Source of the DNA: Thermoleophilia bacterium
GTDB taxonomy: Bacteria; Actinomycetota; Thermoleophilia; Miltoncostaeales; Miltoncostaeaceae
DNA length: 36,067 nucleotides
Direction of reading: 5' to 3'
Assembly: GCA_020438485.1 (NCBI GenBank)
Contig: JAGQUM010000037.1
Location: 1 to 36,067, forward strand
Made by a program: the position numbers and the translations under genes. The notes under the pieces are model-generated. The model did no database searches and was not told where the DNA came from. It worked only from the letters and a program-made list of their open reading frames with translations. Below, piece after piece: positions 4,610-34,430 of the stretch (its first letter is position 1; each line of letters begins with the position of its first letter).

Positions 4610-6082
4610 ATGGGCCTGATCCGCACAGGTGGGGGAGACGGAGGGCTCCTGGGGGCTCTCGCCGCCATCCGCGACGGCGACCTCACCCGCCGCATCACGC
4701 CATCGGGGGCGGTGACCAACGCCGCCGCGGCCGCTTTCAACGCGGCGCTCGACCGGATCGACCACGTATTGGGCAGGGCGTCCGGCGACGTGGAGTCACT
4801 GGGTCGCTCGGCGCGGGAGATGGTGGACGCCAGCGGCCAGGCGCGCGTGTCGGTCGACGAGATCGCCACCGGCATCGAGCAGGTCGCCACCGGCGCGTCG
4901 GATCAGGCCGAGTCGGCCGAGCGGGTCGCCGCCAACGTGGAACAGATTCAGCAGGGATTGGCGGGCGTCTCCCACGAGGGGCAGGGCGCCGTGGAAGGGA
5001 TGTCGCGCGCCGACGAGGCCGCCCGCGACGGCGCCGCGTTGCTCACCTCCGCCGGGCAGGCGATGGACGAGATCACCCGCGCGGTGCGATCCTCCACGGA
5101 GGTGGTGACACGGCTCGGCGAACGCGCCGAGCAGATCGACGCGATCGTCGAGACGATCCGGCGGATCGCCGACCAGACCAACCTGCTGGCGCTCAACGCC
5201 GCCATCGAGGCGGCCCGCGCGGGCGAGCAGGGACGTGGCTTCGCGGTCGTCGCCGACGAGGTGCGTGACCTGGCGGGCGACACCGGTGAGCAGGTCGGCT
5301 CGATCTCGTCCATCGTGGCGGAGATCCAGGCCGAGGCGCGTGACGCGATCGCCGCGGCCGAGGCCGGTATGGCGGCGGTGGACGCGGGATCGCAGCGCAT
5401 GAACTCGGTGGCCGAGGCCTTCGAGACCATCCGCACCCGCTCGAGCGAGGCGTCGGAGCGCGTGCGCGGGGTCGCATCGTCCGCGGCCGCGCTGGGGACG
5501 ATGGCGCAGGAGGCTCGCGACGACACCGCCGCGGTCGCCGCCGTGGCACAGCAGAGCGCGGCGGCCGCGCAGGAGGTCGCCGCGTCGACCCACGAGGCAT
5601 CGCGCAGCGTGTCGCTGCTGGAGGGTGCCGCGTCGATGGTGTCGGCCACCGCCGGCCAGCTCGGAACCCTGATGGGCGACGTCACGGTGAGCCCCACCGG
5701 GCACGCCGAAATCGGTGCCGATGCCGAGCTCGCCAGCGTCGCCGATGCCGCGCTGGCGGCTCACGCCGCGTGGAGGGGCCGCCTGCAGGCGGCCATCGAA
5801 ACCGGATCGAGCGACGCGGACCCCGCAACGGTGGCCCTCGACAACGTCTGTCCGTTCGGTGGATGGCTCTACGGGGCAGGCGCGCAGCACTCGAGCGACG
5901 ATCGCTACGAGGAGGTGCGTGCGTTGCACGCGCGGTTCCACGAGGTGGCCGGCACGGTGCTGGGCCTGGCCCTGGCAGGCCGTGCCGACGACGCGCGCCA
6001 GGCGATCGCGGTCGGCAGCGAGTTCCACACGGTGTCGGCAACGCTGTCCGGGACCCTCAGCGAATGGGCCAGGCAGGCGTAG
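4610..6082 (+). CDS. Soluble methyl-accepting chemotaxis protein with C-terminal CZB zinc domain
   Basis: The 490-aa protein has no signal peptide or membrane segment, so it should be a cytoplasmic chemoreceptor. Residues 10-50 resemble the end of a HAMP domain ([17 protein letters not shown]). A long coiled-coil signalling domain follows, whose hairpin tip ([20 protein letters not shown], about 187-222) binds CheA/CheW. The C-terminal part carries the chemoreceptor zinc-binding (CZB) signature: His385, Cys414 in [12 protein letters not shown], His440 and His444 in HARFH. This 3His/1Cys site binds zinc and, in studied CZB receptors, responds to zinc or hypochlorite (family knowledge). GGAGGG lies 6 nt before the ATG. 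No other chemotaxis or flagellar gene is nearby. Confidence 0.93.
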
Positions 6083-6819: not shown

Positions 6820-7524
6820 TCACCACACCTCGCGGCGGACCCGGGCGGCGTCAGGGGCCGCCCGCGGCGCGGGGCGGTGCTCCCCCGCGTGGCGGGCGCC
6901 GCGCCCGGCCACCGCGGCGGCCCACGCGGTGGCCACGCGCACGGTGAGCTGGCTCATTGCGCCGACCAGCTCGTGGCGCGCGCCCTCGTCGAGCGTGGTC
7001 AGGGCGCGGTCGAGCGCGCGCTCCAGCGCCAGGCTGCCGCCGAGCGTCACGTCCGCCGAGCTTCCGGCAAGCCCGTGCCCGCGCCCGTACACCTCTGCGC
7101 GTTCGAGCGCGTCGGCCAGGTTGCCCGACTCGAACGCGTCGGCCAGCGCATCCATCCACGCGCGCACCACGGCGCGGCGATCCGCGGGCGGCAGGCGGCG
7201 GAACGCCACCTCGGCGGTGCCCTCCACGAGCGACTCGACCTCCTCGGCCACGCGTGTCGCGCGCTCGCGGACGACGGCCGCGAGGGCCGGCGAGCGGGTG
7301 ACGCGGGCCGTGACGCGCCGCGCCGGCCGCGTCGGACGGGAGGGTTGCTGGGCCAGCCATTGGCGCAGGGCCTCGGGGTCGAACCGCCGGTGGCCGCCCG
7401 CCGTGCGGACGTGGGGGATGCGGTCCTCGCTGGCCCACAGGCGGAGCGTGCTGGGGCTGACCCCGAGCGCGCGGGCGGCGCCGGACACCGAGAGCCACGG
7501 GCCGTCCGCCCGGCGCGGGCTCAT
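6820..7524 (-). CDS. GGHRRF-type HTH regulator B (tandem paralogue)
   Basis: The 234-aa product has an N-terminal MerR/excisionase-like winged-helix domain: LSVSGAARALGVSPSTLRLW, then HVRTAGGHRRFDPEALRQWL. The RTxGGHRRF wing is typical of MerR-superfamily and BldC-like DNA-binding domains. Residues about 85-215 form an all-helical domain with no cobalamin-binding signature; blocks such as AFESGNLADALERAEVYGRG resemble the helical input domains of RsbR-type proteins, but that is only a weak visual likeness. The tail is Arg/Pro/Ala-rich. Its ATG overlaps the stop of the upstream paralogue (ATGA), so the two are co-translated and may act as a heterodimer. Target genes and signal are unknown. Confidence 0.8.
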   Translation of the reverse strand: MSPRRADGPWLSVSGAARALGVSPSTLRLWASEDRIPHVRTAGGHRRFDPEALRQWLAQQPSRPTRPARRVTARVTRSPALAAVVRERATRVAEEVESLVEGTAEVAFRRLPPADRRAVVRAWMDALADAFESGNLADALERAEVYGRGHGLAGSSADVTLGGSLALERALDRALTTLDEGARHELVGAMSQLTVRVATAWAAAVAGRGARHAGEHRPAPRAAPDAARVRREVW

Positions 7525-8198
7525 CGTTCGTCGACCTTCAGGCGGGCCCGGACGCCTTCCGCGTATCCGGAGGCGATGCGGATGGCCATCCGGTCCATGG
7601 CTCGCTCGATGGTGCGCCGCTGGTCCGGCTGGCCGTCCAGGTGCGGCACGGCCGCCCTGTCGAGCGCACGGCGCAGGGCGAGGGCCTCCGTGATGGGCCC
7701 GTCGCCGGCCTGGCCGCCGGCCCCGTGACGGAAGCCCTCCCACTCGGCGTCGCGCAGGAACCCCGAGAGATCGCCGGACTCCACCCCGCCGGCCAGCGCG
7801 TCGACCGCGTCCAGCGCGCGCGTCCTCCGGCCGGCGGCGCTGCGCGCCGTGACGGCGCGGCTGCGGGCGAGCTCCTCCTCGAACACCGCGGCGATCGCGC
7901 CGCGGGAGCGCCGCACGAGCGCCGCGACCTCCGGCATGGCGGGCACGCGGGTCGGGACGAGCTCGGTTCCGCGCGACGACCCGGACGGCGGCCCGGCTCC
8001 CCGGTCCTTCAACCACTTCACCAGCGTCTCGCGCTCGAACCGGCGGTGGCCGCCGGGGGTGCGCACGTGGGGAACCCGGCCGGCGGCGGCCCAGGCGCGC
8101 AAGGACGAGGAACTGACTCCGAGCATGCGCGCGGCGGCCGATACCGACAGCATCTCGCGGTCATCCACCGACGTCTCCACGTGCGTGCCCTTGGCCAT
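7521..8198 (-). CDS. GGHRRF-type HTH regulator A (tandem paralogue)
   Basis: This 225-aa protein has the same architecture as its downstream neighbour: an N-terminal HTH (LSVSAAARMLGVSSSSLRAW, HVRTPGGHRRFERETLVKWL) and a helical C-terminal domain with the parallel block GVESGDLSGFLRDAEWEGFR. The two are clearly paralogous but diverged outside the HTH. I place the start at the ATG at 8198 because GGGGAGG lies 8 nt upstream; a GTG at 8207 would overlap that site. A dyad and a third half-site lie over the apparent promoter (8237-8275), suggesting autoregulation. Family placement in the MerR-like HTH group is good; the biological role is unknown. Confidence 0.82.
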   Translation of the reverse strand: MAKGTHVETSVDDREMLSVSAAARMLGVSSSSLRAWAAAGRVPHVRTPGGHRRFERETLVKWLKDRGAGPPSGSSRGTELVPTRVPAMPEVAALVRRSRGAIAAVFEEELARSRAVTARSAAGRRTRALDAVDALAGGVESGDLSGFLRDAEWEGFRHGAGGQAGDGPITEALALRRALDRAAVPHLDGQPDQRRTIERAMDRMAIRIASGYAEGVRARLKVDER

Positions 8199-8236
8199 TT
8201 CGCGCACCTCCCCGAACGCCCGCCGGGTCTCGTGAC

Positions 8237-8275
8237 AACGGTGTCTAACCGTTACAATCTGTCTCTGTCACCGTT
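8237..8275 (-). promoter_or_regulatory. Promoter with dyad operator for the regulator pair
   Basis: AACGGT (8237-8242) and ACCGTT (8248-8253) form a perfect dyad with a 5-nt spacer. A third ACCGTT lies at 8270-8275, 22 nt, or two helical turns, from the second. On the minus strand GTGACA and TTAGAC are separated by 17 nt and could be -35 and -10 boxes, placing the dyad over the -10 and transcription start. This fits autorepression by the adjacent HTH proteins, which is inference. Confidence 0.55.
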
Positions 8276-8417
8276 TCTTGCACGACCGGCGCTTTCGCGC
8301 AACCGGAATCGCGCACGAAGTACGCCAAAAGTCGGCGGATCCGGGGCCGAACATAATGGTCCTGCCTGAAACCTATGAAATCCGACCACCGAACGCGCGG
8401 CGGCTATCCCTTTTCGG
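8276..8417. other. AT-richer intergenic segment
   Basis: The stretch between the regulator promoter and the end of the DedA gene is visibly less GC-rich than its surroundings. It contains a TATAAT-like CATAAT at 8350-8355 on the plus strand, but no coding frame that I trust. It could hold a small RNA promoter; nothing further can be supported. Confidence 0.3.
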
Positions 8418-34306: not shown

Positions 34307-34430
34307 GCCGAGCGGCGCGTCGAACGCTGTCCCCACCTTGTTCGAGGTGTAACAGGGATGCCCCGCCGCTCAAGGAACGGTGCGCTACCGTCGAGTCCGA
34401 CATTCAGGAGAGAGCGCGAGGGGCGTCGAC

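What the first reader, a model, noticed from the sequence alone, without database searches (positions are those of the whole stretch)
6820..8275. Tandem paralogous GGHRRF regulators with a dyad operator
Two genes overlapping by ATGA encode the same layout: MerR/BldC-like HTH plus a helical domain of about 130 residues with no cobalamin-binding motif. The HTH parts are similar, the helical parts diverged. A dyad AACGGT-N5-ACCGTT and a third half-site two helical turns away cover the promoter. This looks like an autoregulated heterodimer whose signal-sensing half is undescribed; no target operon is attached.
Basis: partly seen in the sequence, partly recalled or inferred. Interest (0 to 1): 0.62.

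Follow-up and report, generated by a model that had tools for sequence, protein, structure and literature searches.

The report
Tandem globin-fold BldC/MerR-type regulators
Two overlapping bacterial genes make a pair of DNA-binding switch proteins whose unexplained second half is predicted to have the fold of the haemoglobin family, a combination I found no description of, so what the pair senses has become an easy laboratory question.

Summary
Two minus-strand genes overlap by ATGA. Their HTH domains are 63% identical and their C-terminal domains 33%. The dyad AACGGT-N5-ACCGTT and a third half-site 22 bp away are where stated.

(1) The "undescribed" sensing half matches no Pfam or NCBIfam model. 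In AlphaFold2 models of both proteins it has a globin fold: nearly all top structural matches are globin-coupled sensors, phycobiliproteins or RsbR-type sensors (Z 10-14). Profile alignments to protoglobin and RsbRD_N beat reversed controls. A histidine kept in 18/20 A and 19/19 B orthologues, and lost in the third paralogue, falls on protoglobin's haem-proximal His in 15 of 17 resampled alignments that reach it.

(2) The pair is ancient: it occurs in 24 of 37 genomes of its family, kept or missing together, beside rpsF-ssb-rplI-dnaB. The domain was not found convincingly outside that family.

(3) The exact dyad is specific to this genome and probably lies downstream of the promoter; the same-genus relative has a different dyad at the same centre.

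Most likely a globin-fold one-component regulator pair, probably a heterodimer. Haem versus another ligand is unresolved; targets are unknown.

The parts
7521..8198 (-). Gene A (225 aa): BldC/MerR-type HTH plus globin-fold domain
   Evidence: orthologue in 24 of 37 family genomes
8001..8153 (-). HTH of A (residues 16-66)
   Evidence: PF12728 HTH_17 48.2 bits, PF00376 MerR 37.7 bits, above cut-offs
7524..7958 (-). Predicted globin-fold domain of A (residues 81-225)
   Evidence: AlphaFold2, Foldseek, VIA-align, HHalign with reversed controls
7725..7727 (-). Codon of His158 of A, at the position of the globin proximal (F8) histidine
   Evidence: Kept in 18/20 A orthologues; aligns to protoglobin's conserved His
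6820..7524 (-). Gene B (234 aa): same layout, start overlaps the stop of A (ATGA)
   Evidence: directly downstream of A in 23 of 24 genomes, the other cut by a contig end
7345..7497 (-). HTH of B (residues 10-60)
   Evidence: PF12728 45.8 bits, PF00376 40.5 bits
6880..7311 (-). Predicted globin-fold domain of B (residues 72-215)
   Evidence: AlphaFold2, Foldseek, VIA-align
7075..7077 (-). Codon of His150 of B, same position
   Evidence: Kept in 19/19 B orthologues that reach it
8237..8253 (.). Perfect dyad AACGGT-N5-ACCGTT
   Evidence: specific to this genome
8270..8275 (.). Third half-site ACCGTT (AACGGT on the minus strand), 22-bp direct repeat of one dyad arm
   Evidence: Read from sequence; shuffles
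8275..8304 (-). Promoter-like element GGTTGC-N18-CAAGAA, similar element upstream of A in several relatives
   Evidence: inferred, no start site mapped

Best explanation
A and B are one-component transcription regulators: a BldC/MerR-type winged HTH joined by a flexible linker to a globin-fold sensor domain. They are made together from one mRNA by stop-start coupling and most likely work as a heterodimer (or mixed homo- and heterodimers) joined through the long last helices of the globin domains, as in globin-coupled and RsbR-type sensors. A ligand or cofactor in the globin pocket, beside the conserved His158 (A) / His150 (B), would alter how the two HTH domains sit and so change DNA binding. 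Shown: gene layout, orthology, old duplication, co-inheritance, conserved His. Predicted: the globin fold. Inferred: dimer type, ligand control, autoregulation. Haem in at least B is about one chance in three; a non-haem ligand is somewhat more likely.
For: HTH families above curated cut-offs. AlphaFold2 models with mean pLDDT 81 and 78. Foldseek matches to BldC for the HTH and to globin-coupled sensors and other globins for the C-terminal domain. VIA-align lists that are globin-fold nearly throughout, Z 10.4-13.7. HHalign of the B domain to RsbRD_N 34.5 and of A+B to protoglobin 30.2, against 8.6-14.8 for reversed profiles. Proximal-His alignment. Pair kept or missing together, A and B separate clades, short spacing throughout.
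Against: No sequence family reaches a cut-off for the C-terminal domain. Foldseek E-values are only 0.02-0.3. Helical models can reach Z near 13 by chance. The two models share one six-sequence alignment. No dimer model could be made. No target or ligand is known.
Confidence: 0.55

Rival explanations
1. Haem-based gas or redox sensor: at least B binds haem through His150, and the pair controls transcription in response to O2, NO, CO or haem level.
For: His kept in 19/19 B and 18/20 A and aligned with protoglobin's near-invariant His in 15 of 17 runs; it lies eight residues before helix G. B usually keeps an aromatic (F/Y) before helix E. Haem-binding RsbR sensors exist (PMC9237108).
Against: His is replaced by Asn or Asp in two A proteins and is absent from all C proteins. 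The other conserved protoglobin residues (Tyr, Phe) are not evident in A. Protoglobin model PF11563 hits another gene of the genome but not the pair.
Confidence: 0.3
2. Non-haem sensor globin: the pocket binds another small molecule, or transmits stress directly, as in RsbR, pXO1-118 or MabR.
For: B domain aligns best with RsbRD_N by HHalign; RsbR (3zta) and pXO1-118 (3pmd) among the best structural matches of A; MabR is a globin-fold non-haem regulator (PMC11617747).
Against: Does not by itself explain the strict His in B. No ligand is suggested by the gene neighbourhood.
Confidence: 0.45
3. Degenerate CarH/LitR protein: the C-terminal domain is the four-helix cap of a B12 photoreceptor that lost its Rossmann domain.
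For: Best PDB sequence match is a MerR-type B12 photoreceptor, 8jbs.
Against: The reliable match is confined to the HTH. HHalign to B12-binding_2 scores 11.8-12.9, the level of reversed controls. Predicted fold differs.
Confidence: 0.03
4. The helical domain senses nothing and only dimerises the HTH, making an architectural, BldC-like DNA-binding pair.
For: BldC itself acts without a sensor (PMC5859096). C has lost the His but keeps the domain.
Against: Conserved buried-type residues and His in A and B are more than a dimer interface needs.
Confidence: 0.2
5. The dyad is not an operator but a 5'-leader RNA hairpin or a chance palindrome.
For: It lies downstream of the inferred promoter; the same-genus relative has TTGTGGCG-N9-CGCCACAA with the same centre and paired changes. 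About 11% of shuffles hold such a dyad.
Against: Only two sequences; RNA folding z-scores are +0.9 and -1.15. Dyad plus third half-site is rare in shuffles.
Confidence: 0.5

Closest known systems
BldC (Streptomyces), PDB 6ama/6amk
   Same: Closest solved HTH by structure and among the closest by sequence
   Different: BldC has no second domain and binds direct repeats head-to-tail (PMC5859096); A and B score below the NCBIfam BldC cut-off
Globin-coupled sensors (BpeGReg, AfGcHK, DosC), Pfam Protoglobin PF11563
   Same: Predicted fold; position of the conserved His
   Different: Output is a MerR-type HTH; PF11563 does not hit the pair; haem binding untested
RsbR-type sensor globins (RsbRD_N PF14361; 3zta, 3pmd)
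   Same: Predicted fold, compactness, best HHalign score for the B domain
   Different: PF14361 does not reach its cut-off in any listed genome of this family; no STAS domain
MabR (Rv2242), PucR-type regulator of Mycobacterium tuberculosis
   Same: Globin-fold sensor on a one-component transcription regulator (PMC11617747)
   Different: MabR has a GGDEF-like domain and a PucR HTH with the globin domain N-terminal; A and B have a MerR-type HTH with the globin domain C-terminal
Photoglobins / photocobilins (8j2w, 8j2x) and phycobiliproteins
   Same: Predicted globin fold
   Different: No B12 domain, no Cys of the CXRD/CXQD motif, no PF01126 haem oxygenase in the genome
CarH/LitR and CtMerR (8jbs) B12 photoreceptors
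   Same: MerR-type HTH of the same kind
   Different: No B12-binding_2 or Rossmann module in A or B

Membership tests
MerR/HTH_17 HTH superfamily | Pfam HTH_17 or MerR match above the curated cut-off | tested here: met
   all 52 A, B and C members match
BldC family (NF033787) | Score at or above 77 bits | tested here: not met
   40.5 and 34.9 bits
BldC family (NF033787) | Head-to-tail binding to DNA direct repeats | not testable with these tools
   Needs binding assays; a 22-bp direct repeat is present
Globin superfamily (fold) | Globin fold of the C-terminal domain | tested here: met
   Predicted only; HHalign
Globin-coupled sensor (Protoglobin PF11563) | PF11563 match above cut-off | tested here: not met
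   No match; the own genome's only match is another gene
Globin-coupled sensor (Protoglobin PF11563) | Proximal haem-ligating histidine | tested here: inconclusive
   A conserved His aligns at the position; haem binding not tested
RsbRD_N (PF14361) | Match above 24.3 bits | tested here: not met
   No listed genome of this family matches; one member at E 0.16
CarH/LitR B12 photoreceptor | B12-binding_2 and B12-binding domains | tested here: not met
Phycobiliprotein/photoglobin | Bilin-site Cys motif CXRD/CXQD | tested here: not met
   No Cys in A or B; motif from PMC10151467
PucR/MabR type | GGDEF-like domain and PucR-type HTH | tested here: not met
   Neither is found by Pfam

The most novel reading that the evidence does not exclude
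The first MerR/BldC-type regulators built on a haem-binding globin: an obligate AB heterodimer in which B carries haem and A a degenerate or different ligand site, giving a gas- or redox-sensing regulator pair specific to one actinobacterial family.
Probability: 0.2. Interest if true: 0.7.

Novelty: new variant of a known kind. Interest (0 to 1): 0.42.

Why it matters
Globin-fold sensors are known on kinases, cyclases, chemoreceptors, stressosome proteins and PucR-type regulators. In the open library searched I found no description of one on a MerR/BldC HTH, although the main photoglobin survey (PMC8717448) could not be read. If right, the finding gives this protein family a fold, a candidate ligand residue and a short list of tests. 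It also shows a small HTH of a kind that works alone in BldC coupled to a sensor domain and duplicated into a possible heterodimer.

Tried and rejected
Direct family placement: Pfam, NCBIfam and PDB sequence searches found only the HTH. B12 cap: rejected. Dyad as a conserved operator: the exact dyad is in no other locus that had been fetched by then. The own genome has four further one-mismatch copies, against one for the control pattern: in front of a tetR gene, upstream of an ETF-domain gene, just past the end of a coaBC-like gene, and at 34376 in the window. This is too little to name a regulon. Photolyase link: only in some genomes and not obligate, since G009 keeps the photolyase without the pair. 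RNA hairpin: folding not significant. Domain outside the family: none convincing in 299 genomes of the class and 396 of the phylum (the first look scores only 10-13 candidates a genome; one weak partial hit, G349). Bilin ligand: disfavoured. Families that the VIA lists do not show are not thereby excluded.

Full report
OBSERVATION. Gene A runs 8198-7521 and gene B 7524-6820 on the minus strand, sharing ATGA. Both start with a MerR/BldC-type HTH ending in GGHRRF, followed by a linker and about 140 mostly helical residues. Within the window genome the HTH parts are 63% and the C-terminal parts 33% identical. The dyad at 8237-8253 is exact, and a third half-site lies at 8270-8275.

CONSERVATION. 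A search that included 37 genomes of the same family found A in 24. B is directly downstream in 23 of these; in the other, A runs into a contig end. The remaining 13 have neither as a pair. A-B spacing is short everywhere examined and stop-start overlaps recur. A third, separate paralogue C lies near lexA. A tree puts A, B and C in three groups, B and C with full support and A at 81/74, so the A-B duplication appears older than the radiation of the family (the tree warns of long branches between groups). The neighbourhood is conserved: rpsF, ssb, rplI, dnaB and a metallophosphatase on one side, a DedA/VTT protein on the other. None of these is an obvious target. The organism belongs with Thermoleophilia by a relative's record title; the family Miltoncostaeaceae is my guess and was not tested.

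THE SENSOR HALF. No curated family covers it. Foldseek hits among solved structures are BldC for the HTH and globin-coupled sensors and other globins for the C-terminal domain, with high probabilities but E-values of only 0.02-0.3. The VIA realignment lists are globin-fold nearly throughout, Z 10.4-13.7 over roughly 115-138 residues. Because helical domains can reach such Z by chance, I checked by sequence profile. HHalign against protoglobin and RsbRD_N domains collected from related genomes gives in-register alignments over most of the domain. Scores are 20.8-34.5 for A, B and A+B, against 8.6-14.8 for reversed profiles; the B12-binding_2 cap scores at noise. HHalign's own probabilities for these pairs are modest (4-71%). 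The lines of evidence agree on a globin fold; none alone is proof.

THE HISTIDINE. His158 of A (His150 of B) sits near the end of the helix that would be F, eight residues before the next helix. It is kept in 18/20 A and 19/19 B orthologues and absent from all 12 C proteins. In 24 resampled profile alignments it fell exactly on the near-invariant His of protoglobin in 15 of the 17 that reached that column. That is the haem-proximal position in globin-coupled sensors (established knowledge of that family). Against haem: the other protoglobin signature residues are not clearly kept in A, two A proteins have Asn or Asp instead, and the compact fold resembles non-haem sensors equally well. I put haem binding in at least B at about one in three. 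Bilin is unlikely: no Cys, and no haem oxygenase of family PF01126 in the genome.

THE DYAD. Alone it is weak, in about 11% of shuffles. With the third half-site it is rarer, 60 of 20,000, but the test is post hoc. The exact dyad is absent from the other pair loci. The same-genus relative has a different perfect dyad with the same centre, which could mean a co-evolved operator or an RNA hairpin; folding energies do not decide. A promoter-like element with counterparts in other genera lies upstream of it, so the dyad is probably in the leader. BldC itself binds direct repeats (PMC5859096), and a 22-bp direct repeat is also present here. Autoregulation remains a hypothesis.

CONCLUSION. The pair is an old, co-inherited tandem of BldC/MerR-type regulators with a predicted globin-fold sensor half, probably a heterodimer, with ligand and targets unknown. 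A precedent for a globin-fold one-component regulator exists (MabR, PMC11617747), so I class it as a new variant of a known kind.

Noticed in passing
L009-L012, roughly 130-190 bp upstream of gene A: In four genomes of one genus a promoter-like GGTTGC...AAT element is followed within a few bases by a short ORF of about 27-30 codons (starting M-x-G) that ends at or overlaps the start of A: a possible leaderless upstream ORF.
   Followed up: no
G000:C87:12796-13398 and relatives (L056-L067): A third paralogue with the same layout but without the conserved His lies beside lexA in the loci examined.
   Followed up: partly
L050-L055, L049: In one genus and one more genome a DPRP-type photolyase and a LOG-family gene lie just upstream of A; G009 keeps the photolyase at 94% identity without the pair.
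   Followed up: partly
G000:C75:26585-26601 (L099): A one-mismatch copy of the dyad lies about 77 bp upstream of an ETF-domain gene.
   Followed up: partly
window 4610-6082: A chemoreceptor-type protein (MCPsignal plus CZB zinc-binding domain) lies between the pair and the conserved metallophosphatase gene; it was not part of the conserved neighbourhood in the relatives examined.
   Followed up: no
G000:C33:29290-29739 (L151): The genome also encodes a recognisable protoglobin-domain protein, separate from the pair.
   Followed up: no
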